A stretch of DNA of 64,000 bases, from assembly GCA_026874595.1 (NCBI GenBank), contig CM049309.1, positions 22,115,033 through 22,179,032 on the forward strand. The letters are read 5' to 3'. Shown one piece after another: positions 19,022 to 51,974 of the stretch; the first letter of the stretch is position 1; every line of letters starts with the position of its first letter. The stretch comes from Sipunculus nudus (taxonomy: Eukaryota; Annelida; Sipuncula; Golfingiida; Sipunculidae). Both the position numbers and the translations under genes were made by a program. The notes beneath the pieces are model-generated. The model was given only the letters and a program-made list of their open reading frames with translations, was not told the origin of the DNA and ran no database searches.

Positions 19022-19199
19022 ATGGCTGAGAACGGCAGTGGGAACCAGAAACTGCCCAACTCCCTGTGCAGGGCGGGTTGTGGCTTTTACGGCAGTTCAT
19101 CATTTGACGGCATGTGCTCGGTGTGTTACAAAGATGCAGTGAAACGTAAACAGCAGAACCCCTCCCCTCCTCCAGTCAGCGGCAGATCAACACCTTCAG
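19022..19199 (+). CDS. ZFAND coding exon 1: start and A20 zinc finger
   Basis: This exon encodes residues 1-59 and contributes the first base of codon 60. It carries the whole A20 finger ([10 protein letters not shown] followed by MCSVCYKD). The acceptor is ttctgttacag ending at 18987, so 18988-19021 is 5' UTR. The donor is tcaG|gtaatc at 19199/19200. Confidence 0.95.
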
Positions 19200-22100
19200 G
19201 TAATCATTCACAGTGAGCGTATCAAAACGGCTGTTGTAATGATATACCGGTGCACTGATACATCAAGATACAAACCCAAGTAAAATTGGTTTGTTTTTAG
19301 CTCAGCTGACTATAAGTCATCTTAGCTATAGTCGTGGTCCATTGTCCGTCGTCCGTCCGTCCATCCGTCCGTAGATGTGGCACGTTTTGAAACCGTAAGA
19401 CCTAGGAATCCAAAATTCGGCATAATGTTAGATGTCTCCAAGATCTCCTACCAAGCCGAAAACTGGGTCTTTGCGACTTTGTTCCTTTGAGAAATTAAGG
19501 AAAAACCTCAATTATTTATTAAAAACCTATTTTCACACTTCAGGACGGCCTTATATCAAAACCACTCATCGGTTTTTCCTAATATTTACTTTTTTTCCAG
19601 TAATATAACTTTAATTAATCAAAATTAAATTGTATACTCAAAATTAGATCAAAATCTTTTAAATTTTTTAAAATATTAACAAAAATAAAAAATTGGTACC
19701 TTAAATTTTGCCCAACTTTGACCATGGCACGTTTTTTTTCTGAAAGTACTGTGGATTAAATTTTCACAGCATGTTTTTGTTAGCATTTTGTCTGTTAACA
19801 CCAAAAATTTGAAACCAGTTGATCAAAAACTGTAGATTTTATTCAAGTTTACAAGCACCATGTATTATATTGTTAACATCTTGCAAGAAATCAGCTCCCC
19901 AGCTTCAGCTCTCAGTTCCTAAAATTTGGTATACAATTAGATGTTTCCAAAATCCCCTACCAAGCCAAGAATTTGGTCACTAGGACTTAATACCTTCAAG
20001 ATATTAATGAAAAACTTCATTTTTCCATTAAAAACCCATTGTTACACTTCAAGACTGCCTAATATCAAAACCACTGATCGGACTGTAATCATATATAATA
20101 TACATATTTTCTATACATTCTCTATGCACATGCCAAAAATGATGTCAGTATTGCGTAATTGTTTTAAGTTATGGGCCCAAACATAATGCACTTTGTAAAA
20201 TATCAAGAAATATATTTACTCCCTTAACAAGGGGATTGCTGAAGCTAGAGATTTTTTTGTCAGGGATGTAACATTATTTAATCAAGATTCAATTAAATAC
20301 CCAAAATTAGTTCTGAATTTTTCAAATTTTATAAGTTGTCAGTATAAATATAAAATTAGTACCTTAAATTTTGCCCAACTTTGACCATGGCACGTTTGTT
20401 TCCTGTGAGCACTGTTGATATAATTTTCATATCATGCACACATAAGGATTTCAGCTTTGTAGTTTAGAAAGCTGACAGAAATTTGCCAAAAATTGTAGCT
20501 TTTATTAATGTTTTTATGATACCATGTCAGACCTTGGCTCTCTCCAGCCCCTCTTGAGTCACCTGTATGTTGACCTTGTTGAACTTTCAGCAAATTATGC
20601 ATGCTTGAGGCGAAACATACACTGGGGCATCCAGGCAGCTTATGGACAGCCACAGTTGATCCAGGTGTCCAACCCAACTCATCTAGTAGTTTTGACCAAC
20701 AACATAAAAATAAGCAATAAATTAATAATTTTTTATTGGTTTTTGATAACAAATTAAAGAAAAATAGAAAAGGAATTTGTTAGTGTATAATAACAGGAAA
20801 TTAACTTGCAGTTACTGATGATATAAGAATATTGTATTGATGGATAGAATGTCACATATTCCAAATAACACCATGCAGTCACCTATGGTATTTTTCAGTT
20901 CAATTTTAATGATAAAAAAGTAAATCATATTATTCATTACTAATCATTAGGGATCATATGAAGGAAATTAATGATAGACAAAGATGCAGTTGATAATATT
21001 AATCTAGATTTCTACTGTGTCTAGTGTGTACATTGATGTGAAATTAGTCCTAAATGAATATATTACATTTATTTTTTTTAATATAAATAAAAGCCATTAA
21101 ACCAGATACTTATGATCATTATTTAAATATGTGAATTTGGTATATTCTGGATTCTCAACATCATTGTTTGGTGAAAACTGAATAAATACCAGACATGGTG
21201 CGAATACTTTGCAATTGTATTTAAATACAAATATGAATATGTACTCCATTATCAAATTTTTTGCATAAAGAATGGGAATTCAGGTAAAAATGAAAGTATA
21301 TGAATACCAGTGAAGATACTTTCAAAATGTATTCATGAATGCATTCATGAATATATTCTGTAATATTATTTTAATAATCATTTCAGTTATATTTCATTTT
21401 AAAAAATCATACGATTCTCTTATTATTTTTAATAAAAATTATATTTGGGACAATATTTGTAATTTTTTTTAATAAATAGTTAAACTCTTATATTATATGT
21501 TCTGCTTATAAGTTATATTGCCAAGTCAAAATCTGTGTGACAATAGTTCTCCATTTGTTAATAAAATAAATGAAATTAATCCTCTTCCCTGTCTCCAAAG
21601 GTACTATCAAAATCATACATAAGCTAAACAACTACAACTCATAATACAGCTTATATTTATTACCACACAAAACCAGCATGTGCCTCATTTTAAATTCATA
21701 TTTTTTTTATCATATATAACAGCTGAGCACCGTGACCCATAGGTCCCTTGTTTTGCAATTACAAAAATAAAATATGTCTCTCCTACCCATGGGCCCCACA
21801 CCCCCAAATTTGAGGAAATATGCACTACTTCAAGAGTTTTGGTATTAACAGAACAGACAACGGGTAATCATAATCAGTAATGATAATCAATTACAGTTGA
21901 TTACATTTTTAGTAATTGTAATCAGTTACATATATATTTTTAAAGTAAAGTAATTGTAATCGTAATGAATTACTCTCCGAATGTGATCGTTATCATGATA
22001 ATTAGATATAATAACACTGATTACTTTGTATTATCCAATTTTAAACAGGTACACTTAATATTTCAGCTTGTAGTGGTCAGGTTTATCCTGTTTAGTTATG

Positions 22101-23709
22101 ATCAGATAATTAGCTGAAAAGGGGGAAGGGTATGAAACTACAGAGGGAGTCCAGCATCGGTCCAGGAGGTGTGAAGAGCATGGCTTCTTTGTAGCATACT
22201 GTTTGCCCAAGCGGTTGTCTAAACCAGCCATTGGTCTTTGACATCAGAACACACCTGGCTTGGTGATACACCAAGGTATAAAATCAAGTAAAATTGTTTT
22301 TTTTTTTACCCATGGGCCAAACATCCCCAAATTTGAGGAAATATGCACTACTGCAAGAGGAATGGTATTAACAGGACAAGAAATCATAATTCAAAAGATT
22401 TTGGTCACAGTGCTCTAAATTGTTAAAGAACATGGTTAAGAAATACTTGTGTATCAATTTTGAGAAAAAAGTATGCAATACTTTAATAGTTACAAGGTTC
22501 ACAGATTTTTTCTATTTAGACTCTTTGACCTTGAGGTCTTCCCTTGCTAATGTTGAAGCCCAAACAAACCAACACAATCACACAGACATAAATAAAAATA
22601 CCACTTCCTGGTTAAGGTAATTACAGAATTTCTTTTCTTGATAAAGTTCATTAAGATACCTCAAAGAAAATTTCTGAAAGGTACTTTACATTCATTTACT
22701 TAGGGATATGGACTGTGTATTAATGAGTTTATGTTGTTGACAGATATCGCAGTAACCTCCTGCAGTGCACAGGCTTCCTCAGCCAGCAGCAGCAACTCAA
22801 GTCCTGTCACGACTGGCAGCAGTGCAGCATCCAGTCCTGGAGTGGACACTGTCAGCACCACACCGTCAGTAGAGACTGCCACGCCCACAGTGGCCACAGT
22901 GCCCACCCCTAGTGATAAAGAGAAGGAGCCAACGCAAGAAGAAGGTGCCACAGGTATTTTAAAAAATATATATATACACACACGTACACACAGTGCCCAC
23001 CCCTTGCAATAAGGAGAAGGAGCCAACGCAAGAAGAAGGTGCCAAAGGTACGTCAAAAATACATACACACATACATACACATTGCCAATCCCTAGTGATT
23101 AAGAGAAGGCGCCGATGCAAGAAGAAGGTGCAACAGCTACACTAAAAGTGTATACACACATACATACATCAGAGTGGCCATCCCTAGTGATAAAGAGAAG
23201 CCTATGCAAGGTGCCATAGGTACACTAAAAATATATATACACACATACATTCACATATCATGCCCATTCAAGGTGATAAACAGAAGGAGCCAATACAAAA
23301 TGTCACTGATAGACTAAAAATAAATATTCATACAAACATACACTCACGATGCCCATCTTAGAGAAAGAGAAGGGGCCAATTTAAGGTTCCACAGGTACAC
23401 TAAGAATATGTATACACACATACATAGACACACAGTGCCCCCCTCCCCCCAGTGATAAAGAGAAGGAGCCAGTGCAAGGTGCAACAGGTATGCTAAAAAA
23501 TATATATATATATATATACACACATACACAGTGCCCCCCTCCTTGTGATAAAGAGAAGGAGCCTATGGGCAAGGATCCACAGGTACACTAAAAATATATA
23601 TACACACATACATACACACAGTGCCGACCCCTAGTGATAAAGAGAAGGAGCCAATGCATTGTACCACAGGTATGCTAAAAATATATATACACACAAACGT
23701 ACACACACA

Positions 23710-23740
<31 letters not shown>

Positions 23741-26700
23741 GAGATAAAGAGAAAGAGCCAGTGCAAGGATCCACAGGTCCACTAAAAATAAATACAGACA
23801 CACACATTCACCCACAGTGCACACCACTAGTGATTAGTAGTGATAAAAAGGAGCCAATGCACTGTACCACAGGTACAATAAAAATATGTATACATGTAAA
23901 CGTACACACATGTCCCCCCCCCCCCCCCCCCCCCCCGTTAGATAAAGAGGAGCCAATGCAGTGTGCCACAGGTACAATAAAAATATGTATACACGTAAAC
24001 AAACACACATGCCCCCCCCCCCAGTGATAAAGAGAAGGAGCCAATGCACTGTACCACAGGTACAATAAAAATATATGTACATGTATATATACACACATGG
24101 CCCCCCCCCTTCCCAGTTTGATAAAGAGAAGGAGCCAATGCACTGTGCCACAGGTTTGCTAAAGATATACATACACACTGATTACACACACATACATGCA
24201 CACACAATTCCCACCCATAGTGATAGAGAAGGAGCAAATGCATGTTGACACAGCTACACTAAAAATAAAAATATATATACAGTCGGGCTTACTTTGTGTC
24301 ATATCTGTTAATAGAAAATCTTGTGTATTGTCACATAAACCTGAAATCCAATACCAGTCCCTATATAAACAATGGTAAATCTGACCCGTTTCATATCATG
24401 GAATCTTGTCATAATCCCTTTTATTGTCATGCTTTGAACGCTTGGCAGTGATACCAGTTGGCAGTTAATATCTCATCAAACTCCAATACGCCGATCAACG
24501 AGGCCAAGAGCCTGTAATCGTTCAGGCATATCAAACGATTGCATGAGGGACTCTCCATCACTTAGCTGATAAACATCTTAGGATATCATGGTAATCGAGA
24601 TCATTGCATTTCTTTGCACTTAATGAGTGCGATGTTTGCGATAACATATCATACATAATGAACTCCTGGCCTTTGAAAGGCTGCAGTTTACACGAGTAAT
24701 GTTTCGCCGAAATGATTTGAAGTACATGCACTAAACTTTGCTTACGACTGGAAATCCCCTTTAAGTGTCCCCGAAAAGCTGGAGGTTTTGTGTGCACTGG
24801 AGGAGATACCTAGTCCAAAACCTCAATTGCAGCAAAACTTCAGAAAGTTGACAATGGCATGATGATGTCCGCTCCCTGAATGGTCCTATCATGAAGACGA
24901 TCGTGGAAGTTTGAGCCATTAATAAGATATCTAGAAAATAAGGTGCAATAGTCAGGAAAAAATTATCTATTAAAATAGTTTGCCTACGCATAACCGTGCC
25001 ACATATTTCGAGACATTTGACCTCATGACCCAGAAGCTACATCTCTTTCTGTTGGCAAGTCTTAGTTTTGTCAGTTATTGCGGCATGCGGCACAAAACAT
25101 ACAGGAAATAAATTGTCAGGTGCGCATAAATGTAATTTGGTATGCGGTTTGCAGGTTTGCAATAAAAATATTCTTAAACGTTTTTGTTTCCTTTTTATTG
25201 ACGATTTATTTAATATCATTTGAGACAACACTTCTTCTATGACTAAAAAGGACATCCGTGTTGAAGCCTGCATAATGTCACATCCTGGTTATTATCATAA
25301 TTTATGAATGAACCACCGATATGACAATAAGCTTGCTTGACTGTACATGCGTTCATACACAGTATTACACACAGTGCCCACCTCAAGAGATTAAGAGAAA
25401 GAGCCAATGCAAGCTGCCACTGGTACACTATAAATATATGTAACACACATGTACTTATAGATGAGAAAAGGTAAATGAATGTAAAAGTATGAAAGGATGA
25501 ATATAACATATTTTGATAAATCATACAGAATTTGTAGTGACATGACAGGATTAGTATCACTGCATAATTTTAAGAATTTTCTTCTTTTACCATATAGAAA
25601 CATATTTTTTTTCACCAGCTTAATTGGATATGCAAGGTTTGGACATGTTCAAAATATTAGAAGGATATAGTCCTGGTGTCATGACAAAGGGACATTTTTG
25701 CAAACACAAATGAGGATTGATACTAATTCCTGGGGTGGCTGACTTTTTGAATGTTCAGACTAAATTCAACCATATTTTCTAATTAGGTCACTGGTTTTAC
25801 CATATCATGTTGGATTATTGTGAGTCTTACCAGTGGACTTGCTAATACAGAGTGTTGGGAGCTTCAGATTTGTTAAGAATATTGTAAGAACTTTGTTTCA
25901 ACTGAAAGACCAATGGAGTATGTCATCTACTTCAGGTGAGACCGCCACAGCCAATGCAAATAGTGATTCTAAAGAGAGCCCCGACAAGGACAAGAAGCCA
26001 AAGAAGAATCGCTGCCATACTTGCAAGAAGAAAGTAGGACTCACAGGTGAGAAGCTTGCTCCACCAGAGGGCGCTCAGTCTGCTGGTTACCTCTCCTGCT
26101 TTTGAGTATTTCAACATGATGTTTAATTTTGTGCACTTAGTCATATTTTGATGATAAGCCACCTTCCCTTTATATCTTCCATATATATGATTTGGAGTTT
26201 TAGTTCAGAATCTAATACTTACTGTGAGAAGGAGGTACCTTTTCCTGAATAATATTAGAAATGAAGATTACACATACATTATAACCCTTGAAAATTTATT
26301 TTTTTTTACATTGGTGGGATAGATTGAAATTCCAGATAGAAAATTCAAATAGAAAATATATGTCAAGCAGTTTTCAGTTGAAATGAGCTGGTATCATTTT
26401 ACATATATAGCTTTTATGTTTTTTTGTGCACTGTGATCTTTGTAACAACTGAAACCCTTAGTTAGCCTGAGGTGGGAAGCTCATGTTTATGTCTTGTTTC
26501 AAGTAGGGTTTCTGTGTAAGGTCTGTTGATTTTTACAAGTGTGTATTGTCAGGGTCCATGGATCACTAGAAAGTTCATTTCCCTGGGCTTTTGATCTGGT
26601 GAGGATCTGAATATGTGACACAGTGTTCCAAACATGTAGCTAAATGTGAGCTGGTCTGTCTTTGTTTTGATACAGGAGAACCTTGCAGGTTGTCACATTG

Positions 26701-28002
26701 CCTGCCACGCTCACAGGGACTTGGCATCAGGCCCAGTACAGCCAACATACATTGGACATCATTCAGTAATCAGTCATAGTCAAACTAGTGTGGTATATGT
26801 CACAAGCAGTAAAAGTCGTCTATGTCTTTTTCAGCAGTTGTATACATTAAGTTCAAATATATCAAAATGCTTGAGTTAATAATGATGCTGTTTTGTATAA
26901 GAAAATTCAGACTGTTGCTGTATCTCCCCTTCAGTTACTAAATGGGAGCATTTTATTTATTGGTGATAGACCAATATCTATCTAACAAATAAGATTACTG
27001 TTTCCTTGCTTTCAGAGTCCCTTGATTTTGAATATTAAGCTTTGTTTAATTGTGTATGATTAATGTATATCATTACACAGGCTTCTCATGTTCTTTTCAC
27101 GACTGCCTGGTCTGACTAGATAAGTAATCTCGCTTTTTCTAAACATTTCGTGCTCTGTTATCTCATGATCCATGTCAGCCTCCAAGGTAAATATTTTGTG
27201 TGATAATGATAATATTGGATAAAATACACAGTCTAAGTAAGCAGTAGAAAAATGTCAATAAAATGTCAATTTAAAAAGGAAACTTTGCCAAACCAAATCT
27301 TAAGGTCAGGGCTTTAATGAATATTTGATCTACCAACCAATTTAATATCACAAAGCACACACCAGAAAATAAATAAAAAAAAAGAATTAATGCCATTTAT
27401 ACAAAACTTTAAAATTTCGCTGATTGGTTGCTGAAATCTGGGGGAAATGATGCTGACTATACAGAACATTATTTTTTAATTTCACATTATGTCCCTTAAC
27501 TAATTTTATCAGTTTATATGACAGTTGATAAGACAGTTTTATCTGATAACAAGTTTTTGTGCAAAGGTACCAACCTGCCACACTGGCTACTTATGAATTT
27601 ATTGATATAAGAATCATTTAGTTTTTGAATATTAGGATTATACAACTGCAAGATGACAGACAATTCATTTAATCAGGGTTCAAATATCTGTACATGCACT
27701 TATATCGGAGGCTGTAGTGTAACTAAGATTTTTTTGCAAGATTGAGTGTTGCCATTTTTGTTGTGCTAATGATGATATACCACTTGAATGCAATTGTATT
27801 ATTTTAGTTATTATGATAAGCAGGATATTGACAGGATTTATTATATTTTGCAGGGTTTGAATGTAGATGTGGGGGCCTGTACTGCAGTATACACCGTTAT
27901 TCTGATAAACATGATTGCACATTTGACTACAAAGAACATGGCCAGAAGCAGATCCGGAAGGCTAATCCTGTAATTGTTGGAGAGAAGATACAAAAAATCT
28001 GA
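19022..28002 (+). CDS. ZFAND5/6-like: A20/AN1 zinc-finger protein, ZFAND5/6 type (four coding exons)
   Basis: Four exons, 19022-19199, 22744-22953, 25936-26046 and 27854-28002, join with all introns in phase 1 and give 648 nt (215 residues plus TGA). Human ZFAND5 and ZFAND6 are about the same length. The A20 zinc finger lies at residues 15-38 with Cys16, Cys20, Cys32 and Cys35. A Ser/Thr/Pro-rich linker covers about 44-150. The AN1 finger uses Cys156, Cys159, Cys170, Cys172, Cys177, His180, His186 and Cys188. The C-terminus [12 protein letters not shown] is the family signature. The start ATG sits in a gccaccATGG context just after an acceptor at 18987, so at least one non-coding 5' exon is expected upstream. 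Known role of the family: ubiquitin binding through A20, proteasome and stress/NF-kB signalling, cytosolic. All zinc ligands are present and no frame break was seen, so the gene looks functional. Assignment to ZFAND5 versus ZFAND6 cannot be made. Confidence 0.96.
19299..21750 (+). mobile_element. Helentron-like non-autonomous element, family A, copy 2 (in ZFAND intron)
   Basis: It begins AGCTCAGCTGACTATAAG with a CCGTCCGTCCATCCGTCC block and ends CAGCTGAGCACCGTGACCC followed by ATAGGTCCCTTG. The interior matches the minus-strand copy at 3776-6126 throughout, including the ACCTTAAATTTTGCCCAAC blocks near 19700 and 20360. Non-coding. It sits about 100 bp after the exon 1 donor of the ZFAND gene, in the sense orientation. 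Confidence 0.62.
22744..22953 (+). CDS. ZFAND coding exon 2: Ser/Thr/Pro-rich linker
   Basis: This exon encodes residues 60-129 in the phase-1 frame. It is low complexity ([33 protein letters not shown]), as expected for the disordered linker between the two fingers. The acceptor is gttgacag at 22743 and the donor is cacag|gtattt at 22953/22954. Its last 54 nt (22900-22953) are the founder-like unit of the minisatellite that fills the start of the next intron. Confidence 0.92.
22900..24270 (+). repeat. Exon-boundary minisatellite (about 15 units) spanning a 5' splice site
   Basis: Units of roughly 75-110 bp repeat the pattern cacacag-tgcccaccc-(c)tagtgataaagagaagg-agccaatgcaagg-tgccacag|gtacac, then AT/CA-rich spacer. 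The first unit is the real end of exon 2 with its donor. Units 2 and 3 keep the longer 54-nt coding-like core and later ones the 48-nt form. Several units have lost the AG or GT or acquired stops. Poly-C tracts have expanded at the ccacccc position in later units. Confidence 0.9.
24271..25365. mobile_element. CpG-rich insertion splitting the minisatellite
   Basis: From about 24.4 kb this block has by eye around 30 CpGs in 0.9 kb, while flanking intron DNA has only a few per kb. It is bounded by minisatellite units on both sides. No coding domain or terminal repeat was recognised, so the element type is unknown. Confidence 0.45.
25366..25450 (+). repeat. Detached unit of the exon-boundary minisatellite
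   Basis: The sequence cacacagtgcccacctcaag followed by agagaaagagccaatgcaag and a ggtacact end matches the array at 22900-24270. It is separated from the array by about 1.1 kb of unrelated, CpG-rich sequence, implying insertion into the array. Confidence 0.8.
25936..26046 (+). CDS. ZFAND coding exon 3: linker end and first AN1 cysteines
   Basis: This exon encodes residues 130-166. A Lys-rich segment ([11 protein letters not shown]) leads into the AN1 pair Cys156 and Cys159 and the conserved KKKVGLTG. The acceptor is ctacttcag at 25935 and the donor is cacag|gtgaga at 26046/26047. Splitting AN1 immediately after GLTG is consistent with the phase-1 junction to the last exon. Confidence 0.94.
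27854..28002 (+). CDS. ZFAND coding exon 4: AN1 core, C-terminus and stop
   Basis: This exon encodes residues 167-215 and TGA at 28000-28002. It contains [15 protein letters not shown] and [11 protein letters not shown] with six of the eight AN1 ligands, then the conserved EKIQKI tail. The acceptor is atattttgcag at 27853. Confidence 0.96.
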
Positions 28003-32221: not shown

Positions 32222-33810
32222 TTATGCCCCCGCCACAAAGTGGCCGGGGCATATAGTTTTACCCATGTCCGTCATTCCGTCATTCCGTCATTCCGAAATG
32301 AAACAGTTGTACGGACTTTTTTTTCGTAATGCCTGCAGATATTGGCCTGATTTTTGGTGTGTGGGCAGATATAGACCAGTTACAGATCGAGTTCGCGTTT
32401 CGTCCCGGTTGACCTACTTTTGACCGTTTTACGGCTCCTAAACTTAGAAAATTTCATGAAAAATAGAAATATTCATGACAGAAACACATGTACGGACTTT
32501 TTTTCGCAATGCCTGCAGATATTGGCCTGATTTTTGGTGTGTGAGCAGATAGAGACCAGTTACAGATCGAGTTCGCGTTTCGTCCTGGTTGACCTACTTT
32601 TGACCGTTTTACAGCTCCTAAACTTAGAAAATTTCATGAAAAATATGAAATATTCATGACAGATACACATGTACGGACTTTTTTTCGCAATGCCTGCAGA
32701 TATTGGCCTGATTTTTGGTGTGTGAGCAGATATAGACCAGTTACAGATCGAGTTCGCGTTTCGTCCTGGTAGACCTACTTTTGACCGTTTTACGGCTCCT
32801 AAACTTAGAAAATTTCATGAAAAATAGAAATATTTATGACAGATACACATGTACGGACTTTTTTTTCGCAATGCCTGCAGATATTGGCCTGATTTTTGGT
32901 GTGTGAGCAGATATAGACCAGTTACAGATCGAGTTCGCATTTCGTCCTGGTTGAACTACTTTTGACCGTTTTACGGCTCCTGAACATAGAAAATTTCATG
33001 AAAAATATGAAATTTCATGACAAATACACATGTACGGTTTTTTTTTTCTCAGTGCCTGCAGATATTGGCCTGATTTTTGGTGTGTGGACAGATATAGACC
33101 AGTTACAGATCGAGTTCGCGTTTCGTCCTGGTTGACCTACTTTTGACCGTTTTATAGCTCCTAAACTTAGAAATTTTCATGAAAAATATGAAATTTCATG
33201 ACAAATACACATGTACAGACGTTTTTTCGCAATGCCTGCAGATATTGGCCTGATTTTTGATGTGTCGGCAGATATTGACCAGTTACAGATGGAGTTCACG
33301 TTTTGTCCCAGTTGACCTATTTTTGACCGTTTGACGGTGCTCTCACATAGAAAATTTCATAAAAAAAGTGCACATGTATGGACTTTTTTTCGCAGTGCCT
33401 GCAGATATGGGCCTGATTTTTGGTGTGTAGGCAGATAATGACCAGTTACAGATCGAGTTCTTGTTTTGTCTCAGTTGACCTACTTTTGACCATTTGACTG
33501 CTCCTGAACATAGAAAGTTTCATGAAAAATATAAATTTTCACAACAAATGCATATGTACTGACTTTTTTTCCTCAATGCCTGCAGATACCACCCTTTTTT
33601 TTGTGTGGGCAGATAGTGACAGTTACAGATCGAGTTTGCGTTTCATCCTGGTTGACCTACTTTTGATTGTTTTACGGATCCTAAACATAGAAAATTTCAT
33701 GAAAGACAGAAATTTTTATGGAAAATGCACATGTATGGACTTTTTTTCACAATGCCTGCATATAATGGCATAATTTTTGGTGTGTTGCTTGATCATGACC
33801 CGTTACAGAT
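32222..33810 (+). mobile_element. Helentron-like element, family B, copy 1, 3' truncated
   Basis: It starts TTATGCCCCCGCCACAAAG, folding with TGGCCGGGGC, then a CCGTCATTCCGTCATTCC head and about nine monomers of roughly 180 bp (TGCCTGCAGATATTGGCCTG at about 32334, 32514, 32694 and so on). It stops inside a monomer at about 33810 without the 3' hairpin found in copy 2. Confidence 0.7.
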
Positions 33811-34303: not shown

Positions 34304-35802
34304 TTATGCCCCCGCCACAAAGTGGCCGGGGCATATAGTTTTACCCATGTCCGTCCATCCATCATTCCGGAATCAAACAGTTGTACAGACTTTTTTTCGC
34401 AATGCCTGCAGATATTGGCATGATTTTTGGTGTGTGGGCAGATAATGACCAGTTACATATAGAGTTCGCGTTTCGTCCCGGTTGACCTACTTTTGAACGT
34501 TTTACGCCTCCTTAACTTAGAAAATTTCATGAAAAATAGAAATTTTCATGACAAATACACATGTACGGACTTTTTTTTCGCAATGCCTGCAGATATTTGC
34601 CTGATTTTCGGTGTGTGGGCAGATAATGACCAGTTAAAGATCGAGTTCGCGATTCGTCCCAGTTGACCTACTTTTGAACGTTTTACGGCTCCTAAACTTA
34701 GAAAATTTCATGAAAAATAGAAATTTTCATGACAAATACACATGTACGGACTTTTTATTCGCAATGCCTGCAGATATTTGCCTGATTTTCGGTGTGTGGG
34801 CAGATAATGACCAGTTACAGATCGAGTTCGCGTTTCGTCCTAGTTGACCTACTTTTGACCGTTTTACGGCTCCTAAACTTAGAAAATTTCATGAAAAATA
34901 GAAATTTTCATGACAAATACACATGTACGGACTTTATTTCGCAATGCCTGCAGATATTGGCCTGATTTTTGATGTGTGGGCAGATATTGACCAGTTACAG
35001 ATCGAGTTCGCGTTTCGTCCCAGTTGACCTACTTTTGACCGTTTTACGGCTCCTGAACATAGAAAATTTCATGAAAAATATAAATTTTCAGGACAAATAC
35101 ACATGTACAGACTTTTTTTTTCGCAATACCTGCAGATTTTGGCCTGATTTTTGGTGTGTGGGCAGATAATGACCAGTTACAGATCGAGTTCACGTTTTGT
35201 CCCAGTTGACCTACTTTTGACCGTTTGACGGTGCTCTATTATAGAAAATTTTCATGAAAAAGTGCAAATGTACGGACTTTTTTTCGCAGTGCCTGCAGAT
35301 ACGGGCCTGATTTTTTTGTGTGTAGGCAGATAATGACCAGTTACAGATCGAGTTCTTGAGCTACTTTTGACCATTTGTCTGCTCCTGAACATAGAAAGTT
35401 TCATGAAAAATAGAAATTTTTATAACAAATGCATATATACAGACTTTTTTTTCCTCAATGCCTGCAGATACCATCCTGATTTTTTTATATGTGGGCAGAT
35501 AATGAGAGTTACAGATCGAGTTCGCGTTTCGTCCCGGTTGACCTATTTTTGATTGTTTTACGGCTCCTAAACATAGAAAATTTCATGAAAGACAGAAATT
35601 TTAATGGAAAATGCACATGTATGGACTTTTTTCACAATGCCTGTAGATACTGGCCTGATTTTTGATGTGTTGCTTGATAATGAGTTTGCATTTTCCCTTG
35701 TTGACCTACTTTTGACCATACGACACCTCCTGAACTCAAAATTTATCAAATGTTTCTAATTTGCCCAAGGCGGGGGCATTTGTGTCGTTCCGACACATCT
35801 AG
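34304..35802 (+). mobile_element. Helentron-like element, family B, copy 2, complete
   Basis: The 5' ATGCCCCCGCC (34306-34316) is exactly inverted as GGCGGGGGCAT at 35769-35779. It is followed by the hairpin GTGTCG-TTC-CGACAC (35782-35796) and a terminal ATCTAG before T's. Inside are eight monomers of about 180 bp. Asymmetric terminal inverted repeats, a 3' hairpin, a CTAG end and T-rich flanks are the known signature of Helentron/HINE elements. There is no Rep/helicase ORF, so it is non-autonomous. Confidence 0.72.
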
Positions 35803-43472: not shown

Positions 43473-43770
43473 GTGAGCGTTGTTCTGCACCACTGATGTC
43501 GGGGGCAGGACATCCTCTCAACATGGTTATGAGGGACCATCTCTAATTATCATTACACTTTGATTTACCTGTCATCTCGACATTTGTAGGTGTTGCATGA
43601 CCCTATTTGTTTGCATAACTTATTATTTGGTGATTTGTTTTTGTTATACCAAAGGCATCATTTCTAGCATTTTCACTTGATGATCGGGCACATGATGTTA
43701 CTTTTGTTGGTTAGTCTGATTAATAAAGGGCTTAATCTTTTTTCTTGTATTACAGACAAAGTGCAACGCT

Positions 43771-51974
<8,204 letters not shown>

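What the first reader, a model, noticed from the sequence alone, without database searches (positions are those of the whole stretch)
22900..24270. Intronic minisatellite made of copies of an exon end plus its splice donor, some units shaped like phase-preserving mini-exons
The last 54 nt of ZFAND exon 2 and the following donor have been amplified about 15 times into the intron. Unit 2 (22994-23047, 54 nt) and unit 9 (23622-23669, 48 nt) are bounded by cacag and ag|gta. They are multiples of three, lack stops and keep the phase-1/phase-1 frame, unit 9 reading [16 protein letters not shown]. If spliced in, they would lengthen the disordered linker without shifting the AN1 finger. Many reiterated donors could also compete with the real one. 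The sequence and frames are seen directly; use as exons is inference, and the CA-rich run before each unit is a weak acceptor.
Basis: partly seen in the sequence, partly recalled or inferred. Interest (0 to 1): 0.72.

Follow-up and report, generated by a model that had tools for sequence, protein, structure and literature searches.

The report
Decaying minisatellite of an exon end
An animal gene carries an old tandem repeat in one intron, made from copies of the end of the preceding exon; it looks like neutral leftover DNA that is spliced out, not a store of extra mini-exons.

Summary
The detached unit is explained by a 1064-nt insertion (24280-25343) with imperfect terminal inverted repeats and TA on each side; removing it gives a 103-nt spacing, within the array's 83-107. 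The genome search found the repeat only here in the 1.43-Gb assembly.

The mini-exon interpretation is weak. Units 2 and 9 keep frame, as do 5 of 12 AG..GT candidates, but 7 of 12 stop early. Acceptors of units 2 and 9 score like a random AG (61st and 51st percentile). Donors stronger than exon 2's number 4, against 3.8 expected. Unit 2 would need a 40-nt intron. In-frame stops are at the neutral level and third codon positions show no excess change. The 215-aa product without mini-exons aligns collinearly with ZFAND5.

Best reading: a microhomology-seeded, neutrally decaying minisatellite removed with its intron. RNA and orthologues were not available, and splice scores rest on recalled matrices.

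The parts
19022..19199 (+). ZFAND5/6-like coding exon 1 (A20 finger), donor at 19200
   Evidence: CDS joined; Pfam zf-A20 6.5e-11
22744..22953 (+). coding exon 2; its last 59 nt (22895-22953) are unit 1 of the repeat; donor CAG|GTATTT at 22954
22895..24279 (+). minisatellite, 15 contiguous units (U1-U15), spacing of donor positions 83-107 nt
22994..23047 (+). U2 exon-like segment (54 nt, in frame); acceptor at the 61st percentile, donor AAG|GTACGT at the 99th; only 40 nt from the exon-2 donor
23175..23219 (+). U4 exon-like segment (45 nt, in frame); acceptor at the 16th percentile, donor at the 83rd
23453..23487 (+). U7 pseudoexon with the best acceptor/donor combination (poly-C CAG and CAG|GTATGC), 35 nt, breaks the frame
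23622..23669 (+). U9 exon-like segment (48 nt, in frame); acceptor at the 51st percentile, donor at the 99th
23744..23776 (+). U10 in-frame candidate behind a poly-C tract (33 nt); GAG acceptor, weak donor (78th percentile)
23942..23971 (+). U12 in-frame candidate behind a poly-C tract (30 nt); donor at the 91st percentile
24280..25343 (.). 1064-nt insertion with imperfect terminal inverted repeats beginning CAGTC, TA at 24278-24279 and 25344-25345; splits the array
   Evidence: (I1)
25370..25450 (+). detached sixteenth unit (U16), with an in-frame stop
25936..26046 (+). coding exon 3
27854..28002 (+). coding exon 4 (rest of the AN1 finger, stop codon)

Best explanation
It is an old, locus-private intronic minisatellite. 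A CACA(G) stretch in exon 2 (22895) and the (CA)n run just inside the intron (about 22975-22993) gave short homology for a tandem duplication of about 94 nt that took in the exon end, its donor and the start of the intron. Slippage or unequal exchange multiplied it to at least 16 units, perhaps some by two-unit steps. C-runs expanded in several units, and a TA-flanked inverted-repeat element later landed in the last junction. The copies drift neutrally and leave with the intron 22954-25935, while only unit 1 stays under coding constraint. Shown: anatomy, frames, splice-score ranks, insertion geometry. Inferred: duplication mechanism and order, neutrality, removal by splicing.
For: CACAG, shared by the exon at 22895 and the end of the intronic CA run, still opens 8 of 16 units (U1, U2, U7-U11, U16). 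The genome search gave 7 matches: the array, U16 and five of 30-33 nt in its poly-C or TA/CA stretches (the tool calls its counts lower bounds). Exon-like and intron-like halves agree with consensus about equally (468 of 545 and 357 of 430 bases). Intronic units with an in-frame stop: 4 of 15 by the reading, 3 of 15 by that, against a substitution-only neutral mean of 2.7, 95% range 0-6. No significant excess of change at third codon positions (P 0.13). Donor and acceptor supply is as in the rest of the window. The exon copy has the shortest end branch (0.015, median 0.2, poorly supported tree). Removing the element gives a 103-nt spacing. The 215-aa protein without mini-exons aligns with ZFAND5 over residues 9-215.
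Against: Second codon positions change less than expected in the exon-like core (P 0.017, one of several tests). By eye, 4 of 6 gaps in the core are multiples of three (U11's rearranged start not counted), though a GAGAAGGAG core may favour 3-nt slippage. U7 joins a poly-C acceptor (99.8th percentile, human-like matrix) to a donor stronger than exon 2's, and U11's acceptor (83rd percentile) nearly equals the true exon-2 acceptor (85th). Similarity to the exon does not fall steadily along the array: U4, U7 and U9 (0.84-0.85) are as close as U2 (0.82), so growth from the exon outwards is not shown. No RNA-seq or orthologue was available.
Confidence: 0.82

Rival explanations
1. Some units are used as cassette mini-exons that lengthen the disordered linker in frame.
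For: 5 of 12 AG..GT candidates keep the frame without a stop; donors of U2, U7 and U9 outscore the real exon-2 donor; second codon positions are slow (P 0.017); most units keep a purine-rich GATAAAGAGAAGGAG-like core that could act as a splicing enhancer (recalled idea, not tested).
Against: Acceptors of U2, U4 and U9 rank at the 61st, 16th and 51st percentile; U2 would need a 40-nt intron; the best acceptor/donor unit (U7) breaks frame; 7 of 12 candidates stop early; stops at the neutral level and no third-position excess.
Confidence: 0.06
2. The array acts as a splicing modulator: decoy donors, CA and poly-C tracts (possible targets of hnRNP L-like and poly-C-binding proteins, recalled) or frame-breaking pseudoexons such as U7 tune the amount of full-length mRNA.
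For: U7 pairs a poly-C CAG with a strong donor 35 nt apart; its inclusion would end the protein before the AN1 finger, with the stop 9 nt before the last junction; the real exon-2 donor is the weakest of the gene's three; 5 AGs of the array score at least as high as the exon-3 acceptor, against 3.3 expected (human-like matrix).
Against: Density of acceptor-donor pairs is ordinary: 2 in the array, both from 23453, and 38 of 96 bins of equal size on both strands have as many or more. With a U-only tract matrix no AG of the array reaches the exon-3 acceptor, against 3.1 expected, and the poly-C sites fall to the 59th-92nd percentile.
Confidence: 0.1
3. The exon end was itself acquired from a pre-existing intronic repeat (the repeat came first and was exonised).
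For: The linker is poorly conserved, so an origin from repeat DNA cannot be excluded by sequence alone; similarity to the exon does not fall steadily along the array.
Against: The last 18 codons of exon 2 align with a stretch of ZFAND5 without a gap (weak in this linker); the repeat was found nowhere else in the assembly; U1 has the shortest end branch.
Confidence: 0.04

Closest known systems
Tandem genomic duplication at AGGT / exon-intron borders (intron-gain model; passages seen in PMC3443670 and PMC4974935, which cite Gao and Lynch 2009 and Hellsten 2011, the latter paper also Rogers 1989; the cited works themselves not seen)
   Same: A tandem duplication that copies exon sequence together with splice signals.
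   Different: Here the copies lie inside an existing intron, reach 16 units, and there is no evidence that a new intron or exon arose.
[quoted passage not shown] the work itself not seen)
   Same: Several short tandem copies that each carry a splice signal.
   Different: There ESTs indicate introns across the duplicates; here no transcript data, a longer unit and an animal gene.
Potato RdRp intron gain, and an 83-bp tandem duplication within intron 1 of the same gene (PMC4974935, passages)
   Same: Duplication across an intron-exon border; the 83-bp one lies within an intron and did not change the gene structure.
   Different: The border copied is intron to exon, with acceptor and branch site, whereas here it is exon to intron with the donor, and the copies number 16.
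TA-flanked inverted-repeat DNA transposons (Tc1/mariner type, recalled)
   Same: Ends begin CAGT, TA on both sides of the 24280-25343 insertion.
   Different: Terminal repeats only about 74% complementary; no Pfam match for the one open frame tested, 24761-25036 on the - strand; no further full copy found in 0.28 Mb.

Membership tests
Minisatellite (VNTR-like tandem array) | head-to-tail units of roughly 10-100 nt, several copies | tested here: met
   spacing 83-107 nt, 15 contiguous units
Minisatellite (VNTR-like tandem array) | length differs among individuals | not testable with these tools
   one assembly only
Cassette mini-exon array | usable acceptor at each unit border | tested here: not met
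   U3, U5, U6 and U15 have no AG at the border; the 7 CA-type acceptors scored lie at the 16th-83rd percentile, against 85th-95th for the three true ones; the 5 poly-C sites score high only if C counts as a tract base. Score only, no RNA
Cassette mini-exon array | length a multiple of three, no stop | tested here: inconclusive
   5 of 12 AG..GT candidates pass (a thirteenth start tried there, 23714, has no AG and was dropped)
Cassette mini-exon array | transcript evidence | not testable with these tools
   no RNA data held
[quoted passage not shown]
   no orthologous genomes held; the copies lie in an existing intron
Tc1/mariner-like non-autonomous element (24280-25343) | terminal inverted repeats with a TA target duplication | tested here: met
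   34 aligned positions (five of them outside the element), 74% complementary, TA on both sides, spacing restored on removal
Tc1/mariner-like non-autonomous element (24280-25343) | interspersed copies elsewhere | tested here: inconclusive
   genome-wide search did not complete; no full copy in 0.28 Mb, only a 29-nt match in L009 and one 20-of-28 end match in L004
ZFAND5/6 (host gene) | A20 finger at the N-terminus and AN1 finger at the C-terminus | tested here: met
   Pfam zf-A20 and zf-AN1; ZFAND5 E 3.4e-45

The most novel reading that the evidence does not exclude
The array is a nursery of exons: most units carry an exon-like purine-rich core and a donor, and C-run expansion keeps creating acceptors, so low-level inclusion of different units (in frame for U2, U4, U9, U10, U12; AN1-removing for U7, U13) gives length-variable or A20-only ZFAND isoforms that differ among individuals with array length.
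Probability: 0.06. Interest if true: 0.55.

Novelty: new member of a known kind. Interest (0 to 1): 0.2.

Why it matters
It is a clean example of how a tandem duplication at an exon-intron border can fill an intron with copies of an exon end and its donor without, as far as sequence shows, changing the gene. It gives a natural test of how much donor repetition a gene tolerates, and shows that C-tract acceptor-like sites can arise by slippage alone. If any unit were used, it would be a direct view of exon birth.

Tried and rejected
Selection on units: no significant third-position excess, stops at the neutral level; the low second-position rate (P 0.017) was kept as a point against neutrality. 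Donor flooding: rejected as unusual, since the count equals the window average. Unit tree: 0 of 13 inner branches well supported; only U1+U2 (80/90) and U8+U10 (83/84) reach the drawing threshold, so no order of duplication is claimed. Similarity falls weakly with distance between units (Spearman -0.23, pairs not independent). Rfam: 0 matches in the window at gathering scores. Literature, by listing (titles and starts of abstracts): searches showed no paper on an intronic minisatellite that repeats an exon end with its donor (15 of 24 listed); one search looked for the fission yeast case and for CA repeats with hnRNP L (0 papers). Only open-licence papers are held. Copies of the inserted element: BLAST of 27 loci plus the window gave only itself and a 29-nt match in L009; the end-repeat search printed nothing and was redone by counting, which gave its own two ends (each 21 of 28 to the other) and one 20-of-28 match in L004 lacking the terminal CAGT; neither lead was followed. 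The splice matrices were written from recall of human-like frequencies, not trained on this species. One search scored the exon-3 donor and exon-4 acceptor one base off, and one search used a start and some donors one base off; replace them. In one search the start 23714 has no AG and was dropped from the count.

Full report
Setting. The window lies at C4:22115033-22179032 of a 1.43-Gb assembly in 153 contigs. The gene is a ZFAND5/6 orthologue or close relative: coding exons 19022-19199, 22744-22953, 25936-26046 and 27854-28002 give 215 aa with zf-A20 (6.5e-11) and zf-AN1 (1.7e-9). The best solved relative is AN1-type zinc finger protein 5, 213 aa, E 3.4e-45, aligned over residues 9-215 of the query. 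The exon model rests on the reading frame and this alignment, not on RNA.

Observation. The 59 nt from CACAG at 22895 to the end of exon 2, the donor and about 35 nt of TA/CA-rich intron are repeated head to tail. Sixteen units are found by a consensus search of the window, E 6.6e-8 to 3e-17, all on the + strand; the next match has E 4.1. Fifteen are contiguous, the exon being unit 1. Donor positions are 83-107 nt apart. U1-U3 keep AAGAAG in the exon-like part; the other units lack six bases there, U8 four. U7, U10, U12, U13 and U14 carry longer C-runs in place of CCCACCCC.

The detached unit. The donor position of U16 (unit 25370-25450) lies 1169 nt beyond that of U15. Between them, 24280-25343 (1064 nt) has ends that are inverted repeats (34 aligned positions including the TA and three further flanking bases, 74% complementary; the element's own ends begin CAGTC) with TA on either side. 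Taking out the element and one TA leaves a spacing of 103 nt, and the joined flanks align with neighbouring two-unit stretches. So the array was once continuous and was split by an insertion that looks like a Tc1/mariner-type non-autonomous element (type by recall). The one open frame of it that was tested (24761-25036, - strand) has no Pfam match. No second full copy was seen in the 0.28 Mb held; the genome-wide search for it did not complete.

Private to this locus. The genome search with 22900-24270 gave 7 matches: the array, U16, and five of 30-33 nt lying in the poly-C or TA/CA stretches. The tool warns that it skips simple repeats and that counts are lower bounds.

Are units exons? Thirteen starts were joined to the next unit donor; one (23714) has no AG and is dropped. 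Of the other 12, 5 keep the reading frame without a stop (22994-23047, 23175-23219, 23622-23669, 23744-23776, 23942-23971) and 7 bring an early stop. About a third would keep length modulo three by chance, and the source segment was in frame to begin with. Scored with recalled human-like matrices against all sites of the window: the acceptors of 22994, 23175 and 23622 lie at the 61st, 16th and 51st percentile, the gene's three true acceptors at the 85th-95th (96th-99th with a U-only tract matrix). The best CA-type acceptor, 23818 of U11, reaches the 83rd, close to the true exon-2 acceptor, but its segment breaks frame. Poly-C acceptors (23453, 23744, 23942, 24025, 24117) lie at the 99th percentile or above, but at the 59th-92nd if C is not credited as a tract base. 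AGs at least as good as the exon-3 acceptor number 5 against 3.3 expected with the first matrix, 0 against 3.1 with the second. Donors at 23048, 23488 and 23670 (5.1 bits) exceed the exon-2 donor (1.6 bits), yet the whole array has 4 such sites against 3.8 expected for that length. Acceptor-donor pairs 25-250 nt apart number 2, both from 23453, and 38 of 96 equal-sized bins on both strands have as many or more. The intron from the exon-2 donor to U2 would be 40 nt, short for an animal (recalled). Extending exon 2 to 23048, 23488 or 23670 puts a stop at codon 149 in each case.

Is there selection on units? The exon-like core agrees with consensus at 468 of 545 bases and the intronic half at 357 of 430 (15 units without the exon). 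In-frame stops occur in 4 of 15 as read (U3, U6, U15, U16) or 3 of 15 as read (U6 falls in another frame there), against a substitution-only neutral mean of 2.7, range 0-6. Third codon positions are not significantly faster (0.174 against 0.169 and 0.079; P 0.13); second positions are slower (P 0.017), and 4 of 6 core gaps are multiples of three (by eye; U11 not counted). Those two points lean the other way but rest on few, non-independent changes. The exon unit has the shortest end branch, 0.015 against a median of 0.2, as expected if it alone is constrained; the tree has no well-supported inner branch.

Mechanism. CACAG opens the exon copy and 7 intronic units, where it closes the preceding CA-rich run. 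Duplication between the exon's CACAG and the CA run of the intron would create the first copy (U1-U2, 94 nt). Later growth by slippage or unequal exchange fits the period, and a 187-nt period over about U8-U13 suggests some two-unit steps. These steps are inferred; similarity to the exon does not fall steadily along the array, so the order of growth is open.

Known work. Tandem duplication of exonic segments with splice signals is a described route to new introns (PMC3443670 and PMC4974935, passages seen), with multi-copy cases in fission yeast described in the latter. This array is of that kind at the DNA level, but shows no sign of a gained intron or exon.

Verdict. Real and well-defined anatomy; ordinary in likely function. 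The main open point is RNA.

Noticed in passing
24280-25343: TA-flanked insertion with imperfect terminal inverted repeats splits the minisatellite; Tc1/mariner-like in shape.
   Followed up: partly
46211-47396: 33-bp minisatellite, 35.9 copies, long open frames on both strands ([11 protein letters not shown] repeat on +, [13 protein letters not shown] repeat on -).
   Followed up: no
32308-33785 and 34382-35670: Two blocks of a similar 181-bp satellite-like repeat, 8.3 and 7.3 copies.
   Followed up: no
43720-44949: Long reading frame resembling a multi-span membrane transporter (SLC46-like by eye, recall) with one in-frame stop at 44434-44436; no Pfam match for the part before the stop.
   Followed up: no
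23713-23740, 23914-23936, 24012-24022: C-runs of differing length in units of the array make polypyrimidine-like acceptors; run lengths may be affected by sequencing error.
   Followed up: partly
L009:912-940: 29-nt match (93%) to the inside of the inserted element.
   Followed up: no
L004:1336-1363: 20-of-28 match to one end of the inserted element, minus strand, without the terminal CAGT; probably chance.
   Followed up: no
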